DNA of 53,437 nucleotides from Opitutales bacterium (GTDB taxonomy: Bacteria > Verrucomicrobiota > Verrucomicrobiia > Opitutales > UBA953): the NCBI GenBank assembly GCA_030725715.1, contig JANRFG010000034.1, positions 1 through 53,437 on the forward strand. The letters are read 5' to 3'. The notes beneath the pieces were generated by a model, which saw only the letters and a list, made by a program, of their open reading frames with translations, did not search any database and was not told where the DNA came from. This document shows, in pieces, positions 72 to 49,942 of this stretch (position 1 is its first letter; every line of letters begins with the position of its first letter). A program made the position numbers and the translations under genes.

Positions 72-565
72 TTGCCGGAAGGAGACTTGGCCTTCTTGGC
101 TTGATCAGCCCGAAACGCCTTTGCCCTAAGCTCACCCTCCGCCTTGGTGGCTTGAGACATCTTGCCGTGCATCCACTCGAGAGACGGGTAGGATTCTTTG
201 TCCCGATAAATCAAATACCACTTAACAGATTCCGCAATTTCATCAGACTGGCTCAAGCCATAGGCTTGGTAAAAAAGGGCCCCCATAGCGTGAAACTTAG
301 AGAGCGAGAGGTAGGCGGGTTTGTAGCCCTGATTAGCCGCTTTAAGATACCAAGAATTAGCAATATTTCTGTCCGCCTTAATACCTAAGGAAGTATTTCC
401 TCCGGCATAAATACTTCCAATTGCACACTGAGCCTCGGGATCACCAGCCCCAGCCTTCTTGAGGTCCTCCTTGAAGGCCTTGGTTGCCTCATTGTCAGCT
501 GAGAATCCGACAAGCGGAGCCAGAGCAAAGAAAGCTAAGGTAAAAGCTCGGTTTAATAGTTTCAT
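68..565 (-). CDS. Secreted small Sel1-repeat-like protein
   Basis: The protein has 165 residues. The start chosen (ATG 565-563) opens directly with a signal peptide of about 22 residues (MKLLNRAFTLAFFALAPLVG). The upstream in-frame Met at 619 would bury it. Residues about 40-95 hold one or two degenerate Sel1-like helical repeats (DPEAQCAIGSIYAGG, then NIANSWYLKAANQGYKPAY). The C-terminus is Lys/Ala rich. Sel1 repeats are protein-interaction scaffolds; no catalytic role is implied. The DNA is clearly AT-richer than the rest of the window (positions 181-240 contain 24 G/C out of 60), and the gene lies on the element side of the tRNA fragment at 683-727, which suggests acquired DNA. A TTGCGT box begins 35 bases upstream of the start. 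Confidence 0.7.
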   Translation of the reverse strand: MKLLNRAFTLAFFALAPLVGFSADNEATKAFKEDLKKAGAGDPEAQCAIGSIYAGGNTSLGIKADRNIANSWYLKAANQGYKPAYLSLSKFHAMGALFYQAYGLSQSDEIAESVKWYLIYRDKESYPSLEWMHGKMSQATKAEGELRAKAFRADQAKKAKSPSGK

Positions 566-645
566 ACTAACAAGCCAAACGGCAAGAGGTCCGAACGCAA
601 CCCCCCATCTTGCGAGCACTATTAAGGCCTTTGCTGGGCCCCTGC

Positions 646-690
646 CTCATAATACCCCTTTAAACGTTAGACACCCAAGGGTCTCATAAT
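646..690. repeat. Repeated CTCATAAT octamer at the tRNA fragment
   Basis: CTCATAAT, the anticodon-loop word of the tRNA-Met remnant, occurs at 646-653 and again at 683-690. A TGGGCCC heptamer is likewise present at 635-641 and at 717-723. The pair of short direct repeats may mark recombination core sites or a degraded second tRNA half. Confidence 0.35.
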
Positions 691-727
691 TCCTTGGTTC
701 TGGGTTCAAATCCCGGTGGGCCCACCA
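683..727 (+). pseudogene. 3' fragment of a tRNA-Met(CAT) gene, candidate attachment site
   Basis: From the anticodon loop (CTCATAA, 683-689) to an encoded CCA (725-727) the sequence follows tRNA rules. The T stem is CTGGG/CCCGG (700-704 with 712-716) around the loop TTCAAAT. The acceptor 3' strand is TGGGCCC (717-723), followed by discriminator A. No matching D arm lies at the right distance upstream. A GGGCCC at 636-641 would need a 92-base tRNA with no recognisable D stem, and the anticodon stem has a T-T mismatch next to the loop. I read this as the displaced 3' end left when an element integrated into a tRNA-Met gene. The element would lie to the left, in the AT-richer DNA. Confidence 0.6.
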
Positions 728-731
728 ACTT

Positions 732-1937
732 TCAACCAGCAGACCGCACCTTTTCCCAGAACGGGAAATACCCACGGGTGGCGTGAGGGAAGAGACGGGT
801 ATCCCATGCCCGGCGGCGCCAGACCATAGAGATGCCGGCGTGGGCGAGGGCTGACTCGATGGCCAGGGCTTCCATCAGCCAAGGACCGACGAACGGACGA
901 TAGGCGACGACCCGCTTGAGCTGATGCTTCCGGGCCCATGCGACCAGCGTCGCGGCGAGGTCGTCCGATGCCTCAGCGGAGACGTCCGCCCCGAAGTGCG
1001 CCCCCGCCCGTAAGGCCCCGTCGTGCAAAGCCGCCGTGGTCCAGTTGGCAACGGCCTCCGACCAGCCGGCCTTCTTGGCCATAGGCTTAGGCCATGAGGC
1101 GTTGATCGCCACGAACTTCTCGGCGGACAGCTCTCCACGTTCGACGGCAAGGTCTTCCGGGTGCACCCACAGCCCCACCCTGCCCTCTGAGGCATTGGTC
1201 CACAAGGGATCCTCCGTCCAGGCAGCGACCTTCGGTATGGCTGGCTCTGTGCTCGGGAACGCCGCGCTCGCCAGCTGGCTGGCCTGCGGCACATGGCGTC
1301 CGTCGGTGTAATGGGCGATGTTGTCCGCCCGGGCGACATAGGTCTTGCCCGGCGTCTGCAGTCCGGCGACCCAGCGCCAAGAGAGCGTATTGCTGGCGAC
1401 ATCCCCATCGAACAGGTGTTCGTAAAAGAACGCAGCCCCGAGCTCCCACGGCAGCTTCAACGTAAAGACCCAGATCGAGGCGAACCACATGCGTGCATGG
1501 TTATGCAGGTAGCCGGTCGCCACGAGTTCCCGGGCCCAGTCATCGAAGCCTGCGATGCCCGTGCGACCGGCGAGCGCCGCTTCCAGCGTCGACCTTTGCC
1601 CGGCGCTCAATGCATCGCGCAATCGCGGCACGGCTTCCACCCAGCGCGACCATGCCTCGGGACGTTGCTCGAGCCAGCCCTTCCAATAGGTCCGCCAGTA
1701 GACCTCCTGCACGAACTTCTCGACGGCCTCGAAAGACCAACGTTCGCGGGCCGCGTCGACGACTTCTTCTTCCAGCAGCAGACGCTTCTGCACCCACGGG
1801 GACAGGCGTGAGATATTAGGGTGTCCCGGGCGGACGAAGTTGCGATCCGCCGCATAGCGCCCGGCATGGGGTAGGAATTCCTCCAGACGCGCCAAGGCCG
1901 CGGCACGGGTCGGGATGAAGTCCATCGGGGATGACAT
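732..1937 (-). CDS. Photolyase/cryptochrome-like FAD-binding protein with unusual domain order
   Basis: The protein has 401 residues. The FAD-binding helical domain of the photolyase family comes first. Visible motifs are LSPW (45-48), EVYWRTYW (78-85), TGYLHNHARM (141-150) and DGDVASN (177-183) followed by SWRWVAG, which match the flavin and DNA-lesion-binding parts of photolyases. Classical enzymes place an alpha/beta antenna domain before this. Here nothing precedes it, and a region of about 150 residues with strand-helix character follows (about 245-400), ending in an FPHATRGYFPFWEKV-like tail. It may repair UV lesions or act as a light sensor. The start at 1937 is preferred because upstream codons lack photolyase character; MDF at 1925 is the alternative. 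The stop lies five bases from the tRNA CCA end. Confidence 0.75.
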   Translation of the reverse strand: MSSPMDFIPTRAAALARLEEFLPHAGRYAADRNFVRPGHPNISRLSPWVQKRLLLEEEVVDAARERWSFEAVEKFVQEVYWRTYWKGWLEQRPEAWSRWVEAVPRLRDALSAGQRSTLEAALAGRTGIAGFDDWARELVATGYLHNHARMWFASIWVFTLKLPWELGAAFFYEHLFDGDVASNTLSWRWVAGLQTPGKTYVARADNIAHYTDGRHVPQASQLASAAFPSTEPAIPKVAAWTEDPLWTNASEGRVGLWVHPEDLAVERGELSAEKFVAINASWPKPMAKKAGWSEAVANWTTAALHDGALRAGAHFGADVSAEASDDLAATLVAWARKHQLKRVVAYRPFVGPWLMEALAIESALAHAGISMVWRRRAWDTRLFPHATRGYFPFWEKVRSAG

Positions 1938-1998
1938 GACTTGACCTAAGCCGAAGCCGCCGAGTCCGCAAATGACCCGCCAGATTATCTCCGTCCGT

Positions 1999-2715
1999 TC
2001 AGGAGCCCTTGGACTTGGTCGCCCCGATCTGCCGGAGCAACTCGTCACGACGCACCCCGCCCCGCAGACGGTTCTGGTCCGAAATCTTCTTTTCCAAGAG
2101 TTCGAGATTGCGGGCCGCGCCTTCATGCGAGCGAGCCGCGACCGACCAACAGGCGAAAGCTTCGGCTTCATCCTTGGGCACGCCGCGACCTTGGCTGTGA
2201 CAATACCCGAGGTGATTCAACGCATCCGGAAAGCCCTGGGCGGCGGACTTGCGGAACCAATCGATGGCCTGCGCCTGATCCCGCGGGACGCCTTCGCCTT
2301 TGGCGTAAGACAGACCGAGGTAACATTGCGCCCGGGCATAACCCTGTTCGGCCGACTTGCAGATCCACTCGATGGCTTTGGCCTGATCCTTGGGGACGCC
2401 GGCGCCGGTGGAGTAGCATACCGCGAGGTTGTTCTGAGCCGGGGCGTAGCCCTGCTCGGCCGCGAGAGCCAGCCATCGGGCCGCCTCTACCAGATCCTGG
2501 GCCACCCCTTCACCCCGGGCGTAAAATCCCGCGAGCTTGAAACGGGCGACCGGATCACCGGCCTCGGCCTTGACCCGCTGCTCCACGAACTGAGGAGCAG
2601 CCGCGTCCGCTTCATCCACCGGCTCCAGCGCGACCATGAGGAAAAGCCAGGCGAAGACCGCTCCCACGGAAAAGAGGGATAACCTGAGCCATTTACGTGC
2701 CGGCGACCGAGACAT
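1999..2715 (-). CDS. Membrane-anchored or secreted Sel1-repeat protein
   Basis: The protein has 238 residues. A basic N-terminus (MSRSPARKWLR) is followed by one hydrophobic segment (about 13-30), which is either a signal peptide or an anchor. At least four Sel1-like repeats of about 36 residues follow (about 50-195). Each carries the signature A..L...Y..G.GV..D...A..W...AA.QG, for example GEGVAQDLVEAARWLALAAEQG. The C-terminal 40 residues are charged and helical. Such proteins are interaction scaffolds in the periplasm. The gene is divergent from the sialidase-like gene at 2799. A TTGACC box starts 34 bases before the start codon, so the transcript probably has almost no leader. Confidence 0.8.
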   Translation of the reverse strand: MSRSPARKWLRLSLFSVGAVFAWLFLMVALEPVDEADAAAPQFVEQRVKAEAGDPVARFKLAGFYARGEGVAQDLVEAARWLALAAEQGYAPAQNNLAVCYSTGAGVPKDQAKAIEWICKSAEQGYARAQCYLGLSYAKGEGVPRDQAQAIDWFRKSAAQGFPDALNHLGYCHSQGRGVPKDEAEAFACWSVAARSHEGAARNLELLEKKISDQNRLRGGVRRDELLRQIGATKSKGS

Positions 2716-2763
2716 GCTGAAAGCCTGCAGCCCCGGCCACAGGGGTCAAGCGGGCCAATGGGC

Positions 2764-2792
2764 TTGGCACAGGCTCAGGCCCATCACAGTCT
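2764..2792 (+). promoter_or_regulatory. Candidate promoter of the sialidase-like gene
   Basis: TTGGCA (2764-2769), a 17-base spacer and CAGTCT (2787-2792) are followed by six bases and the ATG at 2799. The -35 box is reasonable and the -10 is weak. The layout matches other heads in this window and implies a leaderless transcript. Confidence 0.4.
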
Positions 2793-2798
2793 GCTGCC

Positions 2799-3923
2799 AT
2801 GCGCCCCCTGCTCCCTGCCCTGCTCTGCCTGGCCTCTTGGGTCATGGCTCAAGACCAGCCCGACCTTCAGGTCGTCGATCTCTCGACCCAGAAGGAACGC
2901 CAGGTGGTCTTAGCCGCGGGCACCCCCACGCTTTACCAAGGCCATCCGACGACGTTGCTGATGCCGGACAGCCGGACGATCTTCTCGGTCTGGTGCATCA
3001 ACCATGGCGGCGCCGCCGGCCCGATGGCCCGCAGCGATGACGGCGGCCTGACGTGGACGCGCCTCGACGCCCAACTGCCCAAAGGGTTCGCGACCCACCA
3101 GAACTGTCCGAGCATCTATCGGATCGTCGACCCGGCCGGCAGAGCCCGCCTCTGGGTCTTCTCCGCCGCCCTGGGCAAACGCGGCGGCCCGGGCATGCCG
3201 AGCATCATGAGCGAGGACGACGGTAAGACCTGGAAAGAAATGCCGCCGCTCAACCTGCCCTGCGTGATGACCTTCAGCAGCCTCGTGCGCCTCAAGGACG
3301 GACGGACGCTCGGCCTCTATCACCGCGGCCCGGGCGGCGCCGATAAGGCCCCGCTGGTGACGCTCCAGACGATCACCGCCGACGGCGGCTTCACGTGGTC
3401 CGAACCGCGCATCGTCGCCGAAGTCGCCGGCAAGAATCCCTGCGAGCCTTTCGTATTCCGCTCACCGGACGGCAAAGAACTCGCCTGCCTGCTCCGCGAA
3501 AACACCCACAAAAGCCGCAGTCTGATGATGTTCAGCCCGGACGAAGGCACGACGTGGTCGACTCCGGTCGACACGAACTGGGGACTGACCGGCGATCGTC
3601 ACAACGGCGTCTTCACTTCTGACGGACGCATGGTGGTCTGCTTCCGCGACCAAGCCCTCAACAGCCCGACCCGTGGCCATTTCGTCGCTTGGGTCGGGAC
3701 GTACGCCGACCTGAAGTCCGGACGACCCGGTCAATATCGCGTCAAGCTCCTGCACCATCATGGCAAACGCCTCGGCGATTGCGGCTACCCGGGCGTTGAA
3801 CTCCTACCCGACGGTACCATCGTGGCCACGACCTACGTTAAATACGCCGACGGACCCGAACAGAACTCCGTGGTGAGCGTCCGCTTCAAGCTGAGCGAAA
3901 CGGACGCCCTCCTGAAGCGTTAA
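2799..3923 (+). CDS. Secreted sialidase (BNR/Asp-box) family protein
   Basis: The protein has 374 residues with an 18-residue signal peptide ending AQ. It has a six-bladed beta-propeller layout with four visible Asp boxes (S-x-D-x-G-x-T-W): SDDGGLTW (79-86), SEDDGKTW (138-145), TADGGFTW (193-200) and SPDEGTTW (246-253). An FRSPDGKE segment near 220 and a C-terminal [12 protein letters not shown] strand fit the exo-alpha-sialidase superfamily. In Verrucomicrobiota and Planctomycetes these proteins are common and many cleave substrates other than sialic acid, so the exact glycan is unknown. It is probably periplasmic or surface exposed. Its stop codon shares the palindrome TTAA (3920-3923) with the convergent phosphatase stop, leaving no room for a terminator. 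Confidence 0.8.
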
Positions 3924-5806
3924 CGCGCCAGAGGTTCCTGCGCGGGCAAGGTTCGCTGGTCGGGACGATCGACGCCGACCTTCACGGTATACTTGCCCGG
4001 TGCGAACACCGGCGGTGCGAAGGACTGGCCGCCGACCAGACGGCGAACGTAGAGCGTCTCGCCGGTCTGCTCGGCGATGACCTGCACGACGGCCGGACCA
4101 GCAGGCAACTCGACGGAAGGCAGGAAGCCGACCGGGTTACGGCCATCGTTATCGGCCAGCGCGAAGGTCTGCGGCCAGCCGGGGAACTGCTGGCCGTCTC
4201 CCTTGCGGGAGTCGCTGAAACGCGGCCAGCACTCGAAGGTGACCTTATCCTGCTTCAGGTCGAAGCGGGCCACTCCGTAACCATCGGCGCGCTGACGTTC
4301 GTCCTGGATGTCACCGGGGTTCGCGTAAGCGAGGACCGACATGCGGTTACCGAGGCCATCGAGGAAGTCCCCGGTCCACGGCAACGGACTACCCGCCACG
4401 GCGTTCGGGCCGGCCTGCTCGTCCTTCGGGTGCCACCAACGACCGTAGATGGTATTCACGAGAGCGGGACTCGTCAGCGAGTAAGGGCCGTCACCGAAGG
4501 CCTCGATACCGTGCTTGACCGTGACGGCGAGATGCTGATCGCCGCAAAGGTGGACGGCTTGCACGCGCCTTAACGCCCGCAGGGCCTCGTCGCGACCCGC
4601 CTGCGGCCAGCCGTTGCAATCCAGGTCAGCCAGCAGGCGGCCGTCACGCTTACCGTGCATGTGGACAGCGCCGCAGAACGCCGTGGCGGAAAGGACGGCC
4701 TTACGACGGACACCGGCCCAGTCCTCGGACCAAGCCGCGAGGAACTTCAGTTGGCGCTGCCCGAGAAGCTGAAGGCCAGGGACATTGATCGACTTCGGAT
4801 CATATTTCTCATCCGTGATGTGATCGGGACGCGGCCCTTGCTGCGGAATCTTACCGAAGGGGCCGGACTTGAACTTGCGGTCCTCGAGGATGGCGAAATC
4901 CATCCCGCCGACCTTGAGGCGCGTGTAGTAGACCGTGATGCCGCGCTGGACCGGTGTGGCGTCATAAGCGTCAGGCAGATGCCACGACTGCTGACGCTGG
5001 ACCATGTTCACGTAAGCCACCGGATAGAAATAGCCGCCATCGGAATTGTCCTTCCGTTCGGACAGCTTGCCGTCTTCGCCCCAGAGGTTCGGATGGCCGA
5101 CGTCATGGTCGTCCGGGATGCAGATCGTCGGACGGTCCTTCATCACGTCGCGGAACTGCAGGCCGAACTCGATCCAGCCGGCGGTGTGCTCGGTGTGACG
5201 GTAGGTCTGGTCACCGGCGAAAAACAGGAGGTCGGGATTCTGCCGGAGAAGATTGTCCAAGATCTCCGGACGGGCGCCGGTCGTGCGGCTGGAATTACAG
5301 GACATGTTGGCGACGACGATCGACTCCTTTTCGGTCGGGTCGCGGCGGACGAGTCCCTCGAACTTCGCCGCCTCGCCGTGACGCACGCGGTAGGCGACAT
5401 CCTTGGAGCCGTCCCAGCCTTCGACGCGGAAGTGGGCGCTCCAGCCCGGGAACCGCACCGGCGCCTGGGCGAGCTCGACCCACGCGTCGCCGCGCTTCAC
5501 CTCAAGCCGGGCGACCTTCGCCTCCTCCGGATAAAGCGGGTAGAGCTGAGCCGTCAGTTTCAGGACGCCGGCCTGCTGGGTGTAGAGCGCGAAGGCGATG
5601 ACCTGATCGCGGGCGACGAGCATCGTGGGCGGCGGGGTGCCTCCGCCCTTCTTGCCCTTGGCCGGCGGCTTCTTCTCCCACCACGCCCCCACGGCGAACG
5701 AATCCAGGTTCGGGTACTCCTTGCCGAACGGCTGAAGAGTCCCGGGAGGAGGAACCGGCGCGCCAATCAGGACGACGGACATCAATAGGCCTAGAAGATG
5801 ACGCAT
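3920..5806 (-). CDS. Secreted PhoD-type alkaline phosphatase/metallophosphoesterase
   Basis: The protein has 628 residues from the ATG at 5806, chosen because it begins a signal peptide ([15 protein letters not shown]). The PhoD-like catalytic core shows FAGDQTYRH (about residue 198), DDHDVGH (about 232) and a CGDQHLAV motif (about 423); these supply the metal-binding Asp and His residues. An N-terminal immunoglobulin-like strand domain precedes it, as in PhoD. A C-terminal beta domain of about 120 residues follows. Its likely role is periplasmic release of phosphate from phosphodiesters or phosphomonoesters. It is divergent from the potassium channel gene and overlaps the sialidase gene stop by four bases. 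Confidence 0.8.
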
Positions 5807-5855
5807 AAGATTCAGGGGGTTGAGGTAAGAGCATCCCAATACTAGGCAATCTATC

Positions 5856-6605: not shown

Positions 6606-6610
6606 ATGGT

Positions 6611-7627
6611 TCAGGAGCCCCAGCTGAAGCGCTCGGGCACCCAGGCGTATTGCCCGCCCTTGGGGACGACCGTCCCGATGCCGGGCCACGGCAGATGGAA
6701 GCCGAAGGCGCGGCTCTTTTCCTTGGCCATGCGGGCGAAGAGCTTCTGGCGGGTCTTGACCGCGGTCTCGGGGTCGTGGTCCATGGCGACGGTCCAGCCG
6801 ACGTTGTCGAACATGAGCACATGATGGTGGACGACGTCGCTGATATGCACGAGCGAATCGTCGCCGGAACGGATCTCGAAGCAGGCATGGCCGTCCGTAT
6901 GACCGGGGGCCGCGAGGACGGTCACGGCGTCATGGAAGAGCTTCTGGCCGTCCTTCGCGATGACGAGCTGGTCCTTGAGGATGTCAAAGTTCCGGCAGAT
7001 GGTCTTCACCATGTTCGGCAGCGGCTTCTTATCGCGCTTCGACTTGGAGAAATCAGGGTTCGGGCCGCGCCAGAAATCATACTCTTCCTTGAGTAAGTAG
7101 ATCTTGGCGTTCGGGAAAGCTGGCTTGCCGTTGTCGACGAAGCCGTCGAGGTGGTCGGAATGCGAGTGGCTGAGGAAACCGGTCGTGACCTGCTCAGGCT
7201 TGATGCCCAGCTGACGCAATCCTTCGGCCAGCCAGCCGAAATTCGGATTAGGATGACGCTCCCCGAAGCCGGCATCGATCAGCGCGACTTCGTCCCCGAT
7301 GCGCAGGCCCATGATGTTCACGTAGAGCGGCAGGGCGTCCAGGCGCTCGCGATTGAACTCCAACGCGGCTTTCATCGTGGGGCGGTCGGACTCCGGCCAC
7401 ATAAGGTCGAGTCCCTGCCGGAAGAGCATATGGCCATCGCTGACCGAGAAGGCCTCGATCTTGCCGATGTTGAACTTGTAGACGTAAGGGTTGGGCGGGC
7501 GCTTGGCCGGGGAAGCCTTCGGGGCGTCGGCCGCGGCGAGACGCGCGGTCGCGGCCAGACCGGCGAGCGCGAAGGCGGCTGAGCCGAGGAATTCACGACG
7601 GGAAGAATGGAGCGGTTCTGAGGCCAT
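6611..7627 (-). CDS. Tat-exported metallo-beta-lactamase-fold hydrolase
   Basis: The protein has 338 residues. The start at 7627 places a twin-arginine signal at the N-terminus (SSRREFLGSAAFALAG, Arg10-Arg11), implying folded export with its metals bound. The zinc signature HSHSDHLDG lies near residue 152, and downstream APGHTDGH and DVVHHHVL segments provide the further His/Asp ligands typical of MBL-fold enzymes. The substrate cannot be told; lactonases, quorum-quenching enzymes and general hydrolases share this layout. It is convergent with the channel gene, with five bases between stops. A strong terminator of the neighbouring secreted protein separates it from the gene at 7741. Confidence 0.82.
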   Translation of the reverse strand: MASEPLHSSRREFLGSAAFALAGLAATARLAAADAPKASPAKRPPNPYVYKFNIGKIEAFSVSDGHMLFRQGLDLMWPESDRPTMKAALEFNRERLDALPLYVNIMGLRIGDEVALIDAGFGERHPNPNFGWLAEGLRQLGIKPEQVTTGFLSHSHSDHLDGFVDNGKPAFPNAKIYLLKEEYDFWRGPNPDFSKSKRDKKPLPNMVKTICRNFDILKDQLVIAKDGQKLFHDAVTVLAAPGHTDGHACFEIRSGDDSLVHISDVVHHHVLMFDNVGWTVAMDHDPETAVKTRQKLFARMAKEKSRAFGFHLPWPGIGTVVPKGGQYAWVPERFSWGS

Positions 7628-10032: not shown

Positions 10033-10112
10033 AAGAGGATTCAAAGTACGGATGACCCGGAGGCAATCCACTAATCGCTTGCCAGCGGCCGTACGAAAAC
10101 GAGGAATGACGC

Positions 10113-13870: not shown

Positions 13871-13899
13871 TTGAAACCCAACCCCTTACCCGCCTGTCT
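13871..13899 (+). promoter_or_regulatory. Candidate promoter of the DUF5722 gene
   Basis: TTGAAA (13871-13876) lies 36 bases before the chosen ATG at 13907. The corresponding -10 (CTGTCT, 13894-13899) is poor, so the support comes mainly from the spacing shared with other heads. Confidence 0.3.
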
Positions 13900-13906
13900 G
13901 CATCCC

Positions 13907-15181
13907 ATGCGTCTGCTTCTCTTGGCTGCTCTGCTCATTTCTTCCATGGCTGCGGCAGCCCCGGACCAGGCTCCTTACCCCAAGACCCCCAGCCCGAAGG
14001 GCCTGCAGGTGCAGATGGTCGACGACCTGCTGGAGCTGGGCGTCCACCACGCCGGCATCAACCTGACGCTGCACGGACTGCTTTCGCCCGCCAAGGAGGC
14101 CAAACCCGGCCAGCCGACGGCCACGGCCGATGGCTACACTTTCGCGATCAACGAGGCTTACGTGAAGTCGCTCGACCGACAGATCAAGGCTTTGAGCGAC
14201 AAGGGCGTCGTGGTCACGGCGATCCTGATCACCTATCGCTCACCCAATGAACGCATCCGTGCGCTCACGGTCCACCCGCAGGCTGATCCCGTCAAGGGCA
14301 CCACGATGGCCGCGAACACGGTCACGCCCGAGGGCCGGGCCTGCTACGCGGCGCTCACGGACTTCATCGCTCGCCGCTGGTGCTCGGCCGATACCTCGCA
14401 CGGCCGGCTCTGGGGTTGGGTCATCAGCAACGAGGTCAACTCCCACCACGAGTGGCACCAGATGGGTCCGGTCACGGTCGAACAGCTCGCGACCCAATAC
14501 GAAGACCAGGTCCGCCTCGCCTGGACGTCCCTGCGCCGCCACTCCGCCCACGCCCGCGTGTACCTCTCGATGGAGCACCATTGGAACTCGCAGGGCCACG
14601 CCGACCCGCTGCAGGCCTGCCGCGGCCGCACCCTGCTCGAGACCTTCGCCCGACGCGCCAAGGAACGCGGAGACTTCGACTGGCACCTCGCCTTCCATCC
14701 CTACCCGAGCAACCTCCGCGATCCCCGTACTTGGCTGGACAAGGTCACGTTCGATGACGACTCGAAGAAGGTGACTTTCAAGAACCTCGAAGTGGTCGCC
14801 CGCAAGCTCGCCTCGCCCGAGTTCCGCTTCGAAGGCAGACCCCGCCGGCTCAGCCTCACCGAACAAGGCTTCGACGTGACCAAGCGCCCGGACGCCCTCG
14901 CCGAACAAGCGGCGGCCTACGCCTACGCCTGGGAGAAGGTCGCCCGCCTCGACGGCGCCGTCGACGCCTTCCTCTACCATCGGCAGGTCGACCACGCGAA
15001 AGAAGGCGGCCTTCGCTTCGGCCTCTGGAGCAACAAGCCGGGCACGATCTTCGAACCCGACCAGAAACGCCCGATCTGGCACCTGGTGAAAGCGGTCGAC
15101 TCGCCGGAGTGGACCTCGATGGCCGCGCAGTATCTCAAGACCTGCGGCCTGAAGAGCTGGGATGAACTGAATCCAAAGTAG
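13907..15181 (+). CDS. Secreted DUF5722 glycoside-hydrolase-like protein
   Basis: The protein has 424 residues from the ATG at 13907, which starts a signal peptide (MRLLLLAALLISSMAAAA); the upstream Met at 13871 is less likely. The fold looks like a TIM barrel. WGWVISNEVNSHHEW carries a glutamate in the position of a barrel acid/base, FHPYPSN lies mid-protein, and LSLTEQGF provides a second glutamate near residue 315. These are the signatures I associate with DUF5722 proteins of Bacteroidota and Verrucomicrobiota. Retaining glycosidase chemistry is plausible; the substrate is unknown. It sits next to the sulfatases and is followed at once by the palindromic repeat element. Confidence 0.75.
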   Translation: MRLLLLAALLISSMAAAAPDQAPYPKTPSPKGLQVQMVDDLLELGVHHAGINLTLHGLLSPAKEAKPGQPTATADGYTFAINEAYVKSLDRQIKALSDKGVVVTAILITYRSPNERIRALTVHPQADPVKGTTMAANTVTPEGRACYAALTDFIARRWCSADTSHGRLWGWVISNEVNSHHEWHQMGPVTVEQLATQYEDQVRLAWTSLRRHSAHARVYLSMEHHWNSQGHADPLQACRGRTLLETFARRAKERGDFDWHLAFHPYPSNLRDPRTWLDKVTFDDDSKKVTFKNLEVVARKLASPEFRFEGRPRRLSLTEQGFDVTKRPDALAEQAAAYAYAWEKVARLDGAVDAFLYHRQVDHAKEGGLRFGLWSNKPGTIFEPDQKRPIWHLVKAVDSPEWTSMAAQYLKTCGLKSWDELNPK

Positions 15182-15314: not shown

Positions 15315-15343
15315 TTGCCCCAGCCTTCCCCGACCCTCAATAA
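15315..15343 (+). promoter_or_regulatory. Candidate leaderless promoter of the sugar kinase
   Basis: TTGCCC (15315-15320), a 17-base spacer and CAATAA (15338-15343) are followed by six bases and the ATG at 15350. No Shine-Dalgarno lies between. Confidence 0.45.
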
Positions 15344-15349
15344 GTCCAC

Positions 15350-19250: not shown

Positions 19251-19348
19251 AATTGAGCGAAATAAAAGGCGGTTTCCTCGCAACAACTTCACCCCCACAG
19301 GGTCGGAAGTCCCCTCGCCTTAGACGCGAAACCTCTTCCAATCCTGAC

Positions 19349-30078: not shown

Positions 30079-30130
30079 TGCCATGGCTCGCGGGGCTCGC
30101 AACCATTCAGGACCGACCTTGTCTTACCCC

Positions 30131-37424: not shown

Positions 37425-37478
37425 GCCGGCCGGAGATTTACGCTGGCGGGAAGGCCGGGCCGTTTCCATAAACACGGT

Positions 37479-39359: not shown

Positions 39360-39367
39360 AGGAGGCC

Positions 39368-39396
39368 AAAGTGCGGGAACCGCCGGCGATTTTCAA
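39368..39396 (-). promoter_or_regulatory. Candidate promoter of the hypothetical gene
   Basis: On the minus strand TTGAAA (39396-39391), a 17-base spacer and CACTTT (39373-39368) are followed by eight bases and the ATG at 39359. The -10 resembles those of menB and the chelatase gene. Confidence 0.45.
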
Positions 39397-39416: not shown

Positions 39417-39445
39417 TTGAAAACGTCCCCCCTGCCTCCAACTTA
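39417..39445 (+). promoter_or_regulatory. Candidate leaderless promoter of menB
   Basis: TTGAAA (39417-39422), a 17-base spacer and AACTTA (39440-39445) are followed by six bases and the ATG at 39452. The last 14 bases including the ATG, ACTTAAGCCCCATG, recur exactly before the gene at 48971. Confidence 0.5.
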
Positions 39446-39451
39446 AGCCCC

Positions 39452-40974: not shown

Positions 40975-41003
40975 TTGACCTGTGGTCACAAAAGGACTAC
41001 ATT
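40975..41003 (+). promoter_or_regulatory. Promoter and operator of the toxin-antitoxin pair
   Basis: TTGACC (40975-40980), a 17-base spacer and TACATT (40998-41003) are followed by six bases and the ATG at 41010, so the message is probably leaderless. TGACC-TGT-GGTCA (40976-40988), a short palindrome, overlaps the -35 and spacer and could be the antitoxin operator. Confidence 0.6.
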
Positions 41004-41009
41004 ACGCGC

Positions 41010-41542: not shown

Positions 41543-41597
41543 TGCTCCTTTCGGCTCCGTTTCTTGCCTTCCCGCGAGTTAGGAATACCCAAGATAC

Positions 41598-42497: not shown

Positions 42498-42540
42498 TTT
42501 GAGATTGAAGGAGGCGACGCCGACGAGGATTGTGCCCGTC

Positions 42541-44331: not shown

Positions 44332-44339
44332 TTTTGGCG

Positions 44340-44368
44340 TTGTTTTATGGGGAAACGACCCCTTGGAT
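44340..44368 (+). promoter_or_regulatory. Candidate promoter of secG
   Basis: TTGTTT (44340-44345), a 17-base spacer and TTGGAT (44363-44368) are followed by six bases and the ATG at 44375. The -10 is weak. A GGGG/CCCC hairpin (about 44349-44362) lies in the spacer. Confidence 0.35.
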
Positions 44369-44374
44369 AGGGCC

Positions 44375-44842: not shown

Positions 44843-44848
44843 GCCGCA

Positions 44849-45679
44849 GTGAAGCCCGGACTGCTCAGCCTGACCGTCCGCTGGGTAGCCTGTCTGGTCG
44901 CGCTCGGCGCCCTCGCCCAGCCCAACACCATCGGCGGTTTCCGCAAGCTGACGGAAGCTGATTCCGCGCAGTTCCTGGCCGGCTTCCGCAACTCGCGTCT
45001 CAGCGGCGACCTTGGCTTGCGTTTCGAGATCACCCACAAGCCCCGCCGCGGCGAAGCGTCGGCCCCGGTTCCGGGTACGCTCTGGGCCAGTTCGGTCGCC
45101 GGCGGTCAGCTGCTCCGCGGAGAAATCAGGGACGCCCGAGGTCGCCCGGCCTTGGCCTTCATTTCCTTCAAGTCGGCGACCGAAAGCCGCGTCTGGGTCT
45201 CTCTCAATGGCGCCCCGGCGAAGGAACTCGATGCCCGTGCGCCGCTGTTGCCGCTGGCCGAAGGGTTGCTGATCTCGCCCTTCGACCTGCAGATGCCTTT
45301 CACCCACTGGCCTCAGACGACCTACGTCACGACCGAGCGTCGCCGTCGTCCGGTGAATGTCTACGAGTCCGTCAATCAGCCCGGCCGGGAACCCGCCAAG
45401 GTGACCTTCTCGATCGACAGCGTCTACGGCGTGCTCGTCCAGGCGATCTGTCATGACGCCCGCGGCGAACCGACCCGCCAGATGCAGGTCGAGGAATTCT
45501 CCAAGGTCGGCGAGCAATGGATGCTGGCCGAGTGCAGCGTGCGCGACGAAGCCAGCCGTGACACCGACCTGCTCCGCATCACCGAGGCCGCCCTCGATGC
45601 GAAATTCGCGCCGGAGACCTTCGAGCCGGCGACCCTGATCCGCCCGGCCGCCCAGCCTACGCACTTCCAGAAACTGTGA
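44849..45679 (+). CDS. LolA-like outer-membrane lipoprotein-sorting family protein
   Basis: The protein has 276 residues from a GTG six bases after the secG stop. A signal peptide ends near ALAQ (about 24). The mature part is beta-strand rich: LRFEITHKPRRGE, VPGTLWASSVAGGQLLRGEI, ALAFISFKSATESRVWVSL, SPFDLQMPFTHWPQTTYV. This resembles the open barrel of LolA/LolB-like outer-membrane lipoprotein-sorting proteins. It probably carries lipids or lipoproteins through the periplasm. It overlaps the nif3-like gene by GTGA. The family call rests on pattern, not on a diagnostic motif. Confidence 0.7.
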   Translation: MKPGLLSLTVRWVACLVALGALAQPNTIGGFRKLTEADSAQFLAGFRNSRLSGDLGLRFEITHKPRRGEASAPVPGTLWASSVAGGQLLRGEIRDARGRPALAFISFKSATESRVWVSLNGAPAKELDARAPLLPLAEGLLISPFDLQMPFTHWPQTTYVTTERRRRPVNVYESVNQPGREPAKVTFSIDSVYGVLVQAICHDARGEPTRQMQVEEFSKVGEQWMLAECSVRDEASRDTDLLRITEAALDAKFAPETFEPATLIRPAAQPTHFQKL

Positions 45680-46437
45680 AGCCCTCCGTCACCGCCACCC
45701 AGGTCGCTCGTTTCTGCGACCTCCTTACCAACCGTAAGGCCATCGCCGACTTCGAGGGCTCCCGCAACGGGCTCCAACACAAGGGCACGCGCCCGGTGCG
45801 CAAGGTCGGCGCGGCCGTCGACGCGGGCGCCGAAGTCTTCGCCGAAGCCGCCCGCCGCGGCGTGGACTTCCTGATCGTCCACCACGGCATGTACTGGCGT
45901 CCGGTCTCGCCCGAACGCGAGGTCCGCGCGCACCGCAAGGCCGCGCTGAAGAAGGCCGGTCTCTCCCTCTACTCCAGCCACCTGCCGCTCGATGCGCATC
46001 CGGCCATCGGCAACAACGCCCTCATCGCCCAGGACCTCGGTCTCAAGGTCGTCGACTGGTTCGTGGATTACGAAGGCCTGCCGATCGCCTGCATCTGCCG
46101 TGGCATCCCGCGCAGCACGCTGCGTCAACGCCTGAAGGCCTCCTATCCGCAGACCTACAAGGGCATCGAGTTCGGCTCCGCCAAACCGAAGAAGATCGCC
46201 ATCCTCAGCGGCAGCGGCCGCAGCGCGCTCGAGCACCTCAAAACCGAAGGCTGCGACACGCTCATCACGGGTGAGCTGCGCGAAGAACATTTCAACGAAG
46301 CCCACGAACAGGGCTGGAACCTCTATCCCTGCGGACACTACGCGACCGAGACCTGGGGCGTGAAGGCCCTCGCGGCAGCGGTGGCCGCGGAGTTCGGCGT
46401 GAAGTGGGAGTTCATCCCCACAGGTAATCCGCTGTGA
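45676..46437 (+). CDS. Nif3-like dinuclear metal-centre protein
   Basis: The protein has 253 residues, GTG start, overlapping the previous stop. The family metal ligands are visible: FLIVHHGMYW (about 75-84) with two His, SSHLPLDAHPAIGNN (about 100-114) with His and Asp, and the C-terminal EEHFNEAHEQG and CGHYATE with His and Glu. These fit the YbgI/Nif3 family, which forms hexameric toroids with two metals per subunit. Relatives have been described as GTP cyclohydrolase type 1-like, but the activity here is unproven. It is followed by gluQ at a TGATG junction. Confidence 0.92.
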   Translation: MKPSVTATQVARFCDLLTNRKAIADFEGSRNGLQHKGTRPVRKVGAAVDAGAEVFAEAARRGVDFLIVHHGMYWRPVSPEREVRAHRKAALKKAGLSLYSSHLPLDAHPAIGNNALIAQDLGLKVVDWFVDYEGLPIACICRGIPRSTLRQRLKASYPQTYKGIEFGSAKPKKIAILSGSGRSALEHLKTEGCDTLITGELREEHFNEAHEQGWNLYPCGHYATETWGVKALAAAVAAEFGVKWEFIPTGNPL

Positions 46438-47279
46438 TGACCCGCGGACGGCTAGCCCCGACGCCCACCGGCTACCTGCACGTCGGCCACGCCCGCACTT
46501 TCGCCCTCGCCGCGGCCCGCGCCTCGGCCGGCACCCTGCTCTACCGCACCGAAGACCTCGACGCGGGACGGTGTCGTCCGGAGTTCGCGGATGCCGCCAT
46601 CGAAGACCTCCGCTGGCTCGGACTGCAATGGACCGAAGGCCCCGACGTCGGTGGCCCGCACGCGCCTTACGTGCAGTCGCAACGCCTGCCTTGGTTCCGC
46701 GACGTCTGGTCGCAACTCCAGGCGACCGGTGCGATCTATCCGTGCGATAAGTCCCGCAAGGACGTCGAACGCAGCCTCACCGCCCCGCACGCCGAGGACG
46801 ACGCCGAGCCGATCTTCCCGCCGGCCCTCCGCGCCCCCATCGGTGCAGGTCGTGAGGCTCGCGAACCTGGCCCGACCAACTGGCGCTTCCGCGTACCCGA
46901 TGGCGAGACCATCGCGTTCGTCGATGCGCTCCAAGGCCCGCAGGCGTTCGTCGCCGGACGCGACTTCGGCGACTTCCTGGTCTGGCGGAAGGACGGCTTC
47001 CCGGCCTACGAACTCGCCGTCGTCGCCGACGATCATGCCATGGGCGTCACCGAAGTCGTCCGCGGCTCCGACCTGCTTCTCTCGACCGCGCGTCAGCTGC
47101 TACTCTACCAAGCGCTTGGCTGGGCGGCCCCGACTTGGGCGCACGCGCCCCTGATCGTCGACGCCGAAGGCAAGCGACTCGCCAAGCGTACCGCCGGACT
47201 CTCGATCCGCGAACTCCGCCAAAAAGGAAAGACGCCGGAGGAAGTCCTCACGGCGCCTTTGGACCAGTTGCTGGATTGA
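46437..47279 (+). CDS. gluQ: Glutamyl-Q tRNA(Asp) synthetase
   Basis: The protein has 280 residues. It is a glutamyl-tRNA-synthetase catalytic core without the anticodon-binding domain. RLAPTPTGYLHVGHARTF carries the HIGH motif as HVGH. RTEDLDAGR, SQRLPWF, WRFRVPDG and VVRGSDLLLSTARQ follow. The KMSKS loop is RLAKRTAG. The zinc-binding cysteines of some GluQRS enzymes are mostly absent; only YPCDKSRKD is seen. It attaches glutamate to queuosine at position 34 of tRNA-Asp. The ATG at 46437 is used; a GTG one codon earlier (46434) is equally possible, since both overlap the nif3 stop. Confidence 0.92.
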   Translation: MTRGRLAPTPTGYLHVGHARTFALAAARASAGTLLYRTEDLDAGRCRPEFADAAIEDLRWLGLQWTEGPDVGGPHAPYVQSQRLPWFRDVWSQLQATGAIYPCDKSRKDVERSLTAPHAEDDAEPIFPPALRAPIGAGREAREPGPTNWRFRVPDGETIAFVDALQGPQAFVAGRDFGDFLVWRKDGFPAYELAVVADDHAMGVTEVVRGSDLLLSTARQLLLYQALGWAAPTWAHAPLIVDAEGKRLAKRTAGLSIRELRQKGKTPEEVLTAPLDQLLD

Positions 47280-47291
47280 CCAGCAGGAAAG

Positions 47292-48086
47292 TTACTTGGC
47301 CGCAGGCGCCGCGGAAGGTGCTTCGGCGGACGCGAGTTTGTCACGGAAGGCCTTGAAAGAGCGGGTCATCGCCTCATCGCCGTCCGCGAGCTTGATCGCT
47401 TCGTCGACATGCTTCAGGGCCTGCTCCTTGGCCGAGGGGTCGATCATCGCGAGGATGCGGGCCTTGTTGAAGGGCAGGACCGCGCGGCGCGTGCCGGTGA
47501 CATCGGCGAACATCTCCTCGAGGGCGGCTTCGGCGGCCTGGAAATCCTTGGCGGCGATGGCCTCGTTGATCTTCAGCCCCAGCACCCGGCTACGCTCCGA
47601 ACGTTCGGTCGTGGACTTCAATTCCTTGGCCAGCGCAGTCTTGCCCTCCGGCGTATTCTTGTAGGTGTCGAGCTTGGCGAGATACTCCTTGGCGGTCTGT
47701 CCGCCGAAGCCGCCGACGCGACCGAAGACCTCGCCTGACTTCGCGTCGAGCAGCAGGACGGTCGGGAAACTGTTCACGGCATACTTCTGCTGCCACTCGC
47801 GGTTCTTGGCCTTGAGCTCGGGCGCCTGCGGCTTGTTGCGCGGGAAATCCAGTTCGACCAGCACGTAGCGGGAGGCCGCCGCGGCGAACTCCGGCGACTC
47901 GAAGACGACCTTGTGCAAAGACTTGCAGGGCGGGCACCAGTCGCTGCCGGTGAAGTCCACCAAGACGGGCTTGTTCTCTTTGAGCCCTTGCGCTTTCGCG
48001 GCGTCGAGGTCGGTGAGCCAGACCGGCCCGGCGGCCGACAAGACCGCGGCGAGAAGGCTGAGCGGAAGCGCGAGGAGGAACTTCAT
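47292..48086 (-). CDS. Exported thioredoxin-fold protein (CPPC), second of a tandem pair
   Basis: The protein has 264 residues with a signal peptide of about 19. A thioredoxin-like domain (about 25-135) holds DFTGSDWCPPCKSLHK, with the redox pair Cys51-Cys54, and the cis-proline region NSFPTVLLLD. A helical C-terminal extension of about 120 residues follows, resembling TPR-type packing (EAIAAKDFQAAEAALEEMF). It probably reduces or isomerises periplasmic disulfides. CPPC is less common than CGPC. It starts seven bases after its paralogue's stop (48094), so the two are one transcription unit. Confidence 0.87.
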   Translation of the reverse strand: MKFLLALPLSLLAAVLSAAGPVWLTDLDAAKAQGLKENKPVLVDFTGSDWCPPCKSLHKVVFESPEFAAAASRYVLVELDFPRNKPQAPELKAKNREWQQKYAVNSFPTVLLLDAKSGEVFGRVGGFGGQTAKEYLAKLDTYKNTPEGKTALAKELKSTTERSERSRVLGLKINEAIAAKDFQAAEAALEEMFADVTGTRRAVLPFNKARILAMIDPSAKEQALKHVDEAIKLADGDEAMTRSFKAFRDKLASAEAPSAAPAAK

Positions 48087-48093
48087 CGGATGA

Positions 48094-48894
48094 TCACTTC
48101 CGAGCCTTCGCGGCGGCAGCGGCGGCGACCTGGGCGCGGAACTGCTTCACGTCGGCTAATTCCTTCACGTCGGCAGAGGTCTCCGCGATGATCTCATCAA
48201 GCACCTTGAGCAAGGCAGCGGGATCGCCTGGCTTGCAGGCCTGCGTGAGGCTCACCCGGGCGTTGATGACCAGGTTGAGCTTGGTCGCAGCGGTCATGGA
48301 CTTGGCTTTGATGAACTTCGCGAGGGCGGCCTCACCGCCGGCCAGGTCTTTCTTCTCGAAGAACGGAGTGAGGATGGTCTCGAGTTCGGAGCCGTAAGCA
48401 CGGACCATACCTTCATCCTTTTTGGCTTGGGCGAACGCCTTGCGTCCTTCGGCAGTATTGGCCTTCAGCAATTCGGCGAGGTGAGCGAGATACTTGACGG
48501 GACCGCCGGCCTCATAGCCGGTCTGCGCGAAAGGCTCGCCGTTGGCGTCGAGCAGCAGAATCGTCGGGAAGCCTTCGATGCCGAACTTCTCGGCGAGCGC
48601 CTTATTCTTCGCCTTTTCTTCGGCGGGCTGTTTCTTCTTCTGCGGGTAGTCGAGCTCCACGAGGACGAAGTCCTTGGTGACCGCGGCGAATTCCTTCTGG
48701 TCGAAGACTTCCTTCTTGAGGCGGATGCACCAGCCGCACCAGTCGCTGCCGGTGAAGTCGACCAGGATGGCCTTCTTCTCGGCCTTGGCGACCTTGATGC
48801 CTTCATCGAGGTCGGTCAGCCAGACGGCTTCAGCGGCGGAAAGGGAGACGGCGCTCAGGCAAAGCGCGACAAGGGCGAGGAGACGGCGGGGCAT
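48094..48894 (-). CDS. Exported thioredoxin-fold protein (CGWC), first of a tandem pair
   Basis: The protein has 266 residues with a signal peptide of about 22. The layout matches its neighbour: WLTDLDEGIKVAKAEKKAI, DFTGSDWCGWCIRLKK with redox Cys53-Cys56, and GFPTILLLDANG with the cis-proline. A helical extension to the C-terminus follows. The two paralogues keep TGSDWC, and a Trp precedes the second Cys here. They arose by tandem duplication and then diverged in the active-site dipeptide (GW versus PP), which should alter redox potential. A TTGCTT box lies 34 bases before the start. It is divergent from the chelatase gene. Confidence 0.87.
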   Translation of the reverse strand: MPRRLLALVALCLSAVSLSAAEAVWLTDLDEGIKVAKAEKKAILVDFTGSDWCGWCIRLKKEVFDQKEFAAVTKDFVLVELDYPQKKKQPAEEKAKNKALAEKFGIEGFPTILLLDANGEPFAQTGYEAGGPVKYLAHLAELLKANTAEGRKAFAQAKKDEGMVRAYGSELETILTPFFEKKDLAGGEAALAKFIKAKSMTAATKLNLVINARVSLTQACKPGDPAALLKVLDEIIAETSADVKELADVKQFRAQVAAAAAAKARK

Positions 48895-48935
48895 GCTTCA
48901 AGGAAACTCCGCTCCCGAAACGAAGCAACCCTGCG

Positions 48936-48964
48936 TTGCAAATACGAAGGTTATCCCTCACTTA
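48936..48964 (+). promoter_or_regulatory. Candidate leaderless promoter of the chelatase gene
   Basis: TTGCAA (48936-48941), a 17-base spacer and CACTTA (48959-48964) are followed by six bases and the ATG at 48971. The word ACTTAAGCCCCATG (48960-48973) is identical to that before menB. Confidence 0.5.
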
Positions 48965-48970
48965 AGCCCC

Positions 48971-49942
48971 ATGGCCGGCACCCGCATCTTCCTTGTCGAT
49001 AATGGTTCCTACGAACCTGCGGCGACCTTGGCCCTCCGAGGGCTGGCCAAGGAAGTCGGCAAGCTCATCGGCCAGGAAGTCCACCCGGTCTCGACGATGC
49101 ATTCGACGAAGATCGACCCTACCCTGCTCGGCGGCGTCCCTGCGGTCATCTTCGAAGGCGCCGTCCAGAAGGCGATGGCCGATGGCATCGACGAAATCGT
49201 GGTGCTCCCGCTCTTCATCGGCCCCAGCCGCGCGATCACCGAGTATCTCCCCAAGGTCTTCGCCGACGCCCAGCCTGGCGCGATGAAACTCAGCATCCGC
49301 GAACCGCTCTTCGGACCGGAACTGCAGGGCATGCTGATCGATAACCTCAAGTCGACCGGCTGGACCAAGGGCAGCGGCACGGTCTACCTTTGTGACCACG
49401 GCTCCCCGATTCCCGAAGTGACGCGTTGCCGCGATTTCTTCGCCAACGCCATCCGCGGCGAACTCGGCCTCAAGGACGACGAGCTCATCGCCTGCTCGAT
49501 GGAACGCCGCGAGGGCGCGGAATATGACTTCAACGAGCCCCTGCTCGAAGACGCGCTGCTATCCGGCAAGGGCGAAGTGGTCATCCTGATGCTCTTCCTC
49601 CTGCCCGGCCGTCATGCCGGCGGCGACGGGGACGTCGCGACGATCGTCAAGGAACACGCGCCCGCCGGCCTGCGCTGGAAGCTCAGCCCCCTGCTCGGCA
49701 CGCACCCTGCCCTGGCCTCCCTCCTCCAGTTACGGCACACGCCTCCGCTCGAACTCAGGCCGGCCAAGAAGATCGTCGTAGGCGCCATGCTTCTCCTGGG
49801 CCTGCTGCCGGTCGCGATCAACCTGCTCGCCCCGCCAAGCCTTGGACTCCTTGAACGCGTGCTGCTCTGGCTGGGCGGAGTCGCCGTCGTGATGGCCGGG
49901 CTCTACCTCGTCTTCCGGGCGAAGGTCTCGAAACAATCCTGA
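48971..49942 (+). CDS. CbiX/SirB-like chelatase with C-terminal membrane anchor
   Basis: The protein has 323 residues from the ATG at 48971. Two halves of a class II chelatase fold are seen. The first has FLVDNGSYEPAATLALRGLA and EIVVLPLFIGPSRAITEYLP. The second has TVYLCDHGSPIPEVT, carrying a His at the metal-insertion site, and VVILMLFLLPGRHAGGDGDV, with another His. The last 55 residues or so hold two hydrophobic segments (about 265-283 and 292-310), unlike soluble SirB or CbiX. It probably inserts iron into sirohydrochlorin for sirohaem, as cobA and cysI lie next to it; cobalt cannot be ruled out. Confidence 0.82.
   Translation: MAGTRIFLVDNGSYEPAATLALRGLAKEVGKLIGQEVHPVSTMHSTKIDPTLLGGVPAVIFEGAVQKAMADGIDEIVVLPLFIGPSRAITEYLPKVFADAQPGAMKLSIREPLFGPELQGMLIDNLKSTGWTKGSGTVYLCDHGSPIPEVTRCRDFFANAIRGELGLKDDELIACSMERREGAEYDFNEPLLEDALLSGKGEVVILMLFLLPGRHAGGDGDVATIVKEHAPAGLRWKLSPLLGTHPALASLLQLRHTPPLELRPAKKIVVGAMLLLGLLPVAINLLAPPSLGLLERVLLWLGGVAVVMAGLYLVFRAKVSKQS

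What the first reader, a model, noticed from the sequence alone, without database searches (positions are those of the whole stretch)
565..48971. Fixed -35 box to start-codon distance: leaderless transcription as the default
After choosing starts from signal peptides and family N-termini, I measured the distance from the first T of the nearest TTG-type -35 box to the first base of the start codon. It is 33-38 bases at 21 of about 31 transcription-unit heads. By start codon the distances are: 565 (35), 1937 (34), 2715 (34), 2799 (35), 5806 (33), 5856 (36), 10032 (34), 10113 (34), 13907 (36), 15350 (35), 18425 (38), 24489 (37), 28916 (38), 39359 (37), 39452 (35), 41010 (35), 41598 (34), 42541 (36), 44375 (35), 48894 (34) and 48971 (35). 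Chance would put a TTG in such a six-base window in under one case in ten, even at 50 percent GC. With a 17-base spacer the -10 ends about six bases before the ATG, so the transcript would begin at the start codon. Shine-Dalgarno sequences are mostly missing. The heads at 7627, 13813, 18339, 19349, 30131, 35984, 36480, 37479, 50712 and 50771 do not fit. Leaderless mRNA is well known in Actinobacteria and Deinococcus; I know of no description of it as the rule in Verrucomicrobiota.
Basis: partly seen in the sequence, partly recalled or inferred. Interest (0 to 1): 0.88.

Follow-up and report, generated by a model that had tools for sequence, protein, structure and literature searches.

The report
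Leaderless genes in an Opitutales-like bacterium
In this GC-rich bacterium roughly a quarter to two fifths of promoters sit at exactly the distance that would make messenger RNA begin at the gene's start codon, without a ribosome-binding leader; the signal is real and strong, but it is not the rule for most genes, and such transcripts have already been measured in another member of the phylum.

Summary
In motif-free gene calls on 778,612 of 1,927,859 bases of the genome, 89 of 314 heads outside the window have it, against 11% in control windows. A two-box promoter model (TTG[AC], 16-17 bp spacer, (T/C)(A/T)NNNT) puts the -10 box 6 bases before the start codon in 26% of promoters (next: 7 bases, 7%), and in about 0% at operon-internal, shuffled or decoy starts. 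A gene-caller-free pattern count gives 55 sites against 10 expected, the highest ratio among 156 genomes. The A of ATG sits where RNA polymerase should start, after a C. Shine-Dalgarno sequences are near background.

"Default" is too strong: leaderless heads are about 26-38%, the largest single class but no majority. The window's 21 of 31 reflects a wide tolerance and reader-chosen starts.

It is not new to the phylum: Cappable-seq put 10% of Akkermansia muciniphila start sites at start codons (PMC4782308). The spread across order and phylum is patchy. RNA 5'-end mapping is the missing proof.

The parts
566..600 (-). leaderless-type promoter of start codon 565: -35 TTGCGT 600..595, -10 TTGGCT 578..573 (d=7)
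   Evidence: model trained outside the window, p 0.98; my caller listed no gene here
1938..1971 (-). leaderless-type promoter of 1937: -35 TTGCGG 1971..1966, -10 TTAGGT 1949..1944 (d=6)
   Evidence: p 0.99; my caller prefers start 1925
2716..2749 (-). leaderless-type promoter of 2715: -35 TTGACC 2749..2744, -10 CAGGCT 2727..2722 (d=6)
   Evidence: p 1.00; my caller prefers start 2667
2764..2798 (+). leaderless-type promoter of 2799: -35 TTGGCA 2764..2769, -10 CAGTCT 2787..2792 (d=6)
   Evidence: p 0.99
5820..5855 (+). leaderless-type promoter of 5856 (GTG): -35 TTGAGG 5820..5825, -10 TAGGCA 5843..5848 (d=7)
   Evidence: p 0.88
10033..10066 (-). leaderless-type promoter of 10032: -35 TTGCCT 10066..10061, -10 TTGAAT 10044..10039 (d=6)
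   Evidence: p 0.99; my caller prefers start 9732
10079..10112 (+). leaderless-type promoter of 10113: -35 TTGCCA 10079..10084, weak -10 GAGGAA 10101..10106 (d=6)
   Evidence: p 0.98; the best orthologue in G018 (42% identity, starts not aligned) lacks it
13871..13906 (+). leaderless-type promoter of 13907: -35 TTGAAA 13871..13876, -10 CTGTCT 13894..13899 (d=7)
   Evidence: p 0.99; my caller prefers the start at 13946
15315..15349 (+). leaderless-type promoter of 15350: -35 TTGCCC 15315..15320, -10 CAATAA 15338..15343 (d=6)
   Evidence: p 0.98
19315..19348 (+). leaderless-type promoter of 19349: -35 TCGCCT 19315..19320, -10 TCCAAT 19337..19342 (d=6); a reader misfit
   Evidence: p 0.88
30097..30130 (+). 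possible leaderless promoter of 30131: -35 TCGCAA 30097..30102, -10 TTGTCT 30119..30124 (d=6); a reader misfit
   Evidence: p 0.52, undecided
37444..37478 (+). possible leaderless promoter of 37479: -35 TGGCGG 37444..37449, -10 CATAAA 37467..37472 (d=6); a reader misfit
   Evidence: p 0.69
39417..39451 (+). leaderless-type promoter of 39452: -35 TTGAAA 39417..39422, -10 CAACTT 39439..39444 (d=7)
   Evidence: p 0.99
40975..41009 (+). leaderless-type promoter of 41010: -35 TTGACC 40975..40980, -10 TACATT 40998..41003 (d=6)
   Evidence: p 0.99
41564..41597 (+). leaderless-type promoter of 41598: -35 TTGCCT 41564..41569, -10 TACCCA 41586..41591 (d=6)
   Evidence: p 0.99
42505..42540 (+). leaderless-type promoter of 42541: -35 TTGAAG 42505..42510, -10 GATTGT 42528..42533 (d=7)
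   Evidence: p 0.97
44340..44374 (+). leaderless-type promoter of 44375: -35 TTGTTT 44340..44345, -10 TTGGAT 44363..44368 (d=6)
   Evidence: p 0.96
48895..48928 (-). leaderless-type promoter of 48894: -35 TTGCTT 48928..48923, -10 TTTCCT 48906..48901 (d=6)
   Evidence: p 0.99
48936..48970 (+). leaderless-type promoter of 48971: -35 TTGCAA 48936..48941, -10 CACTTA 48959..48964 (d=6)
   Evidence: p 0.97
   Evidence: p_leaderless 0.00, p_any 0.99
39360..39396 (-). 39359: -35 TTGAAA 39396..39391, -10 CACTTT 39373..39368 at d=8, so a leader of about 1-2 nt
   Evidence: p_leaderless 0.00, p_any 0.99
50713..50760 (-). 50712: a promoter fit at d=19 (-35 TTGATA 50760..50755, -10 ATAAAT 50737..50732), a leadered head
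   Evidence: p_leaderless 0.01, p_any 0.99

Best explanation
Housekeeping (sigma-70-type) promoters in this genome have a -35 box TTG[AC], a 16-17 bp spacer and a -10 box (T/C)(A/T)NNNT. In about a quarter to two fifths of transcription-unit heads that promoter is placed so that the -10 box ends 6 (sometimes 7) bases before the start codon. RNA polymerase initiating 7 bases after the -10 box then starts on the A (or G) of the start codon, after a C, giving a leaderless mRNA. Such an mRNA would be translated without Shine-Dalgarno pairing, by recognition of the 5'-terminal start codon. Most other heads have promoters 8 or more bases away, with short or longer leaders; SD is near background there too, and the clearly leadered class is poor in G. 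Operon-internal genes show only a weak SD excess, and many overlap the upstream gene. Shown from sequence: promoter layout, its fixed distance, its specificity for heads, SD scarcity, conservation in a congener. Inferred: the actual 5' ends and the mode of ribosome binding.
For: EM on 338 heads: distance d=6 takes 26% and d=7 7% of promoters (pi 0.84); unambiguous starts give d5-7 x pi of 36% (n=121) and 38% (n=152). Operon-internal starts (n=209) and shuffled heads give 0.00. A motif learned only from sites with d>=9 still gives d=6 at 23%; decoy in-frame downstream starts (n=724) and out-of-frame ATGs (n=136) give 0.00; jittering starts by up to 15 bases gives a highest single-distance share of 10.8% in 100 runs. 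TTG and the -10 box co-occur: T at -7 in 43 of 63 heads with TTG at -34/-35 against 78 of 275 without (p 6e-9). C at -1 in 84% of the 95 leaderless-class heads against 55% of the 66 leadered ones. In promoters with d 8-12, A stands at offset 7 after the -10 box in 34%, and YA at offsets 6/7 in 22%, a modest independent sign that transcription starts about 7 bases on. Whole-genome pattern without gene calls: 55 against 10 expected. Congener G018: d=6 at 21% of promoters in 110 heads, and 60 against 14.4 by pattern. Start-aligned orthologues: 7 of 10 own leaderless heads are leaderless in G018, against 1 of 12 others (p 0.005). E. coli K-12 run the same way: d5-7 is 2% of promoters in 67 heads, 4% in the 35 without an upstream alternative. 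SD 5-mers in heads 5.6% against 4.4% shuffled.
Against: No 5'-end data. The start caller is imperfect: 32 of 43 exact on an E. coli test stretch. The Deinococcus deserti plasmid 2 (200 kb), meant as a positive control, gave only weak fits with this genome's motif (pi 0.15) and a free-motif fit whose -10 column did not look like a -10 box, so the method was not shown to recover a proven leaderless organism. In G018 the subset without upstream alternative starts gave a lower share, d5-7 17% of promoters (n=40), unlike the own genome. The start-point sign is modest: in the d 8-12 class YA is also high at offset 12 (25%, where start codons fall), and in leadered promoters it is 18% at 7/8 but 17% at 10/11. 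Of all 54 reciprocal orthologue pairs only 7 are leaderless in both, with 13 own-only and 4 G018-only; 32 of the 54 are not start-aligned. 16S rRNA was not found in this genome, so the anti-SD could not be read.
Confidence: 0.86

Rival explanations
1. Leaderless transcription is the majority mode; weak promoters and mis-called starts hide the rest.
For: With reader-chosen starts a window-independent model of 31 heads leaderless; start-aligned orthologue pairs give 10 of 22; promoters with d up to 12 total 55%.
Against: Motif-free starts give 26-29% even when alternative starts are allowed, and 36-38% for unambiguous starts. 66 of 338 heads are leadered with d of 20 or more at posterior above 0.6.
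Confidence: 0.1
2. The fixed distance is a by-product of compact intergenic space: promoters are simply close to genes, and leaders are short but present.
For: Gaps of 80-120 bases hold 119 of 338 heads, and d 8-12 holds about 20% of promoters.
Against: The peak is one to two bases wide, is present at gaps of 200 or more (d6 23%, n=94) and is lost under jitter.
Confidence: 0.03
3. The starts next to the promoters are not used; transcription starts there but translation begins at a downstream in-frame codon.
For: High-GC ORFs have many alternative starts.
Against: 724 downstream decoy starts carry no peak; orthologues in G018 align from residue 1 in all 7 conserved cases; the coding score chose these starts without the motif.
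Confidence: 0.01

Closest known systems
TA-led (leaderless) genes of Actinobacteria and Deinococcus-Thermus, Zheng et al. 2011 (PMC3160421; passages and section 7 read)
   Same: TANNNT-type -10 box about 12 bp before the start codon, high GC; proportions around 20% of genes in Actinobacteria and around 40% in Deinococcus-Thermus
   Different: Here the -35 TTG is also clearly visible at a fixed distance and the -10 is looser ((T/C)(A/T)NNNT). Shares here are of transcription-unit heads, theirs of genes. Verrucomicrobia are not in that paper's list of groups with leaderless genes (one genome there is 'unclassified')
Akkermansia muciniphila leaderless start sites, Ettwiller et al. 2016, Cappable-seq (PMC4782308; passages read)
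   Same: Same phylum (recalled); 10% of high-confidence start sites lie at annotated start codons, with -35 and -10 boxes and YR at -1/+1
   Different: Experimental; the share is of TSSs, not of heads; another family. Here prediction only, about 26-38% of heads
[quoted passage not shown] Akkermansia (PMC10783764; passages read)
   Same: Few SD-anti-SD pairs before start codons
   Different: Anti-SD of this genome could not be read; in the passages seen, scarcity was not tied to promoter position

Membership tests
Bacterial leaderless (TA-led) genes | -10-like signal concentrated about 10-12 bp upstream of the start codon | tested here: met
   -10 box at -12..-7, d=6 at 26%
Bacterial leaderless (TA-led) genes | Excess over shuffled upstream sequence and over decoy starts | tested here: met
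Bacterial leaderless (TA-led) genes | No SD before the start codon | tested here: met
   SD 5-mers in 4.2% of 95 leaderless-class heads against 5.3% shuffled (4-mers 30.5% against 25.6%)
Bacterial leaderless (TA-led) genes | Mapped 5' end at the start codon | not testable with these tools
   needs dRNA-seq or Cappable-seq
Bacterial leaderless (TA-led) genes | Translation of the leaderless mRNA | not testable with these tools
   needs a reporter or ribosome profiling
Sigma-70-type promoter | Two hexamers with a 15-19 bp spacer | tested here: met
   TTG[AC] and (T/C)(A/T)NNNT, spacer 16-17 in 94% (15-19 allowed); boxes co-occur
SD-scarce organisms with conserved anti-SD | Intact CCUCC at the 16S 3' end | tested here: inconclusive
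   16S not found in this genome, and in 37 relatives only one partial match; CCTCC present in all 27 of 31 class and phylum loci whose tail could be read
SD-scarce organisms with conserved anti-SD | Low share of genes with SD | tested here: met
   SD 5-mers in 5.6% of 338 heads (4.4% shuffled) and 8.1% of 209 operon-internal genes (3.7% shuffled); by my own crude count, not that paper's energy criterion

The most novel reading that the evidence does not exclude
In this lineage translation initiation has become almost wholly SD-independent: a third or more of transcription units start at the start codon itself, so promoter position and start codon evolve as one unit, the rest use short G-poor leaders, and operon-internal genes rely mainly on coupling to the upstream gene. 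This arose, or was kept, in patches within Verrucomicrobiota (own genus and genus g57, G148 of f41, some f14 members, f24, f25, f30, f15).
Probability: 0.4. Interest if true: 0.6.

Novelty: new member of a known kind. Interest (0 to 1): 0.42.

Why it matters
It extends predicted leaderless transcription to an Opitutales-like Verrucomicrobiota lineage in which SD signals are near background, at a share of heads (26-38%) of the order of the gene shares reported for Actinobacteria and Deinococcus-Thermus, though the two measures differ. It gives a practical rule for calling starts and promoters in such genomes (the -10 box 6 bases before the start), and the patchy spread in order and phylum makes gain and loss of leaderless initiation testable among close relatives.

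Tried and rejected
The tool's reversed-pattern count was rejected as a control because it changes the sequence (CATG becomes GTAC); a shifted-distance control (d 15-19, divided by five) was used instead, which itself may hold some true promoters. TTG plus strict TANNNT (pattern A) is too rare to be useful: 3 hits at d=6 in 778 kb. Small samples (61-100 kb) of 12 relatives were too noisy to judge single genomes; three (G018, G037, G034) were enlarged. The D. deserti control was weak and is told as such. The rplM upstream comparison found the gene by my crude filter in 11 of 19 same-genus loci (not in the own one, L001); in 10 of these 11 a TTGAC lies upstream, at about 44 bases before the MKT start in L052, so rplM looks leadered, not leaderless. 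Reading the anti-SD of the own order failed for want of 16S matches; I did not pursue why. Dropped rows: of 665 genes, 19 near stretch ends or without a neighbour were not used; of 646, 4 divergent starts with gaps of 20-39 were left out of the 338 heads, and 95 same-strand starts with gaps of 21-59 were analysed apart.
Full report
Observation. The listed boxes are there: strict TTG in the 33-38 window in 21 of 31 heads, 1-6 of 31 in the ten other windows tested. GC is 63-68% in 5-kb steps.

Genome test. The genome has 1,927,859 bases in 37 contigs. I used 778,612 bases: the window and 40 stretches. A codon-Markov caller that never sees promoters gave 665 genes, 90% coding. On one 50-kb E. coli stretch it found 43 of 47 typed genes and 32 of those 43 starts exactly.

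Peak. TTG at -35/-34 stands at 11/9% of 196 divergent heads and 8/8% of 167 same-strand heads, about 0% of 209 operon-internal starts; in the heads T at -12, A at -11 and T at -7 rise and G falls. A two-box EM on 338 heads (divergent gap 40 or more, same-strand gap 60 or more) learned TTG[AC], spacer 16-17, (T/C)(A/T)NNNT, with d (bases between -10 end and start codon) at 6 in 26%, 7 in 7%, then a low tail. d5-7 times pi is 28% of all heads, 26% of 192 divergent ones, 36% of 121 with no alternative start nearby, 38% of 152 with none upstream. Outside the window alone it is 27% of 314. With a fixed score and shifted controls it is 26% at called starts and 28-29% allowing alternative starts, at the two lowest thresholds; stricter thresholds give less, down to 15-16%. 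Same-strand starts with gaps of 21-59 carry it too (about 22-25% at the lower thresholds, n=95).

Controls. Shuffled heads and operon-internal starts give 0.00; 724 in-frame downstream decoys and 136 out-of-frame ATGs give 0.00; jitter gives at most 10.8% at any one distance in 100 runs; a motif learned without sites nearer than d=9 still finds d=6 at 23%. Heads with TTG at -34/-35 have YWNNNT at -12..-7 in 21 of 63, those without in 24 of 275 (p 3e-6).

Start point. In the leaderless class the A of ATG stands at offset 7 after the -10 box, after C. In promoters with d 8-12, where the start codon cannot impose it, A at offset 7 is 34% and YA at 6/7 is 22%; YA is 25% at offset 12, where start codons do fall. 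In leadered promoters YA is 18% at 7/8 and 17% at 10/11. This mildly supports initiation 7-8 bases after the -10 box.

SD. SD 5-mers are near shuffled levels in heads (5.6% against 4.4% of 338) and about twofold above in operon-internal genes (8.1% against 3.7% of 209); 4-mers are 23% against 20% and 29% against 20%. Of 9 GGAGG/AGGAG in the last 30 bases before operon-internal starts, 6 lie at -16 to -12, so a weak SD use may remain there. 88 of 209 operon-internal genes overlap or abut the upstream gene, 60 by four bases. The 66 clearly leadered heads have C-rich, G-poor leaders.

Relatives. The nearest named proteins to the window's YchF-like protein are from Pelagicoccus (70%) and Cerasicoccus (69%), of the best 80 kept; I know both as Opitutales (recalled), and own or very near records may be left out there. 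In 300 kb of congener G018 d=6 takes 21% of promoters, but d5-7 only 17% in its 40 heads without upstream alternatives; in 300 kb of G037 (other family, same order) d=6 and 7 lead with 10% each; in 154 kb of G034 d=5 leads with 12%; E. coli has d5-7 at 2%. Without gene calls, TTGN{19,20}YWNNNTN5CATG against the same with 14-18 bases gives ratios of 5.5 (own), 5.2 (G178, same family), 4.2 (G018) and 4.0 (G148), but only 1.7 in congener G116 and 1.3-1.6 in three genomes of genus g56. The order median is 1.21, with 7 of 86 genomes at 2 or more and 25 below 1; one of the 86 gave no matches. Outside the order 8 of 70 reach 2 or more, median 1.15, 24 below 1; the nine f15 genomes pool to 1.72. The pattern demands C at -1 and so favours GC-rich genomes. 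The spread is patchy, not a phylum rule.

Orthologues. 54 reciprocal pairs with G018: both leaderless 7, own only 13, G018 only 4, neither 30 (p 0.046). In the 22 start-aligned pairs: 7, 3, 1, 11 (p 0.005). In several, boxes and distances hold while the spacer has changed.

Literature. Leaderless with Verrucomicrobi listed 19 papers, of which only PMC10783764 bore on the question by its listing; leaderless with Opitut one irrelevant; Verrucomicrobi with dRNA-seq and transcription start sites none; with Cappable-seq none. These phylum-name searches missed PMC4782308, which came up under Akkermansia: 10% of A. muciniphila start sites at start codons, E. coli 0.4% (passages). Other species-level reports may have been missed likewise. 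Zheng et al. found leaderless genes in 207 of 953 bacterial genomes; Verrucomicrobia are not in their list (PMC3160421, section 7). Lomsadze et al. 2018 is not held. [quoted passage not shown] So the kind is known, the phylum has one experimental precedent, and this lineage is a strong new case by prediction.

Noticed in passing
G047 and G100 (family f25, same phylum), partial match list: A good number of the listed leaderless-type sites in this family begin with TTGGAAA, a -35 extension not seen in the own genome's motif; it may be a lineage-specific promoter consensus.
   Followed up: no
own genome, 209 operon-internal starts: Operon-internal genes also show little SD; 60 of 209 overlap the upstream gene by four bases, which suggests termination-reinitiation.
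   Followed up: partly
same-genus loci L047, L052, L054, L055 and others: All 11 same-genus loci in which rplM was found keep a pyrimidine-rich stretch (TTTCCCTCTTT) directly before the MKT start of rplM, a possible SD-free ribosome entry or regulatory leader.
   Followed up: no
family f1, genera g1, g56, g57: Within one family the leaderless pattern ratio runs from 5.5 and 5.2 down to 1.3; even a congener (G116) has only 1.7, so the trait may change quickly or G116 may differ in composition.
   Followed up: no
window 50712-50771: The divergent pair at 50712/50771 has an AT-rich intergenic region, and both heads fit leadered promoters best (d=19).
   Followed up: partly
families f26 and f28 (same phylum, six genomes each): The pooled leaderless pattern ratio is below 1 (0.73 and 0.92; not tested for significance), possible lineages that lack or avoid it.
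   Followed up: no
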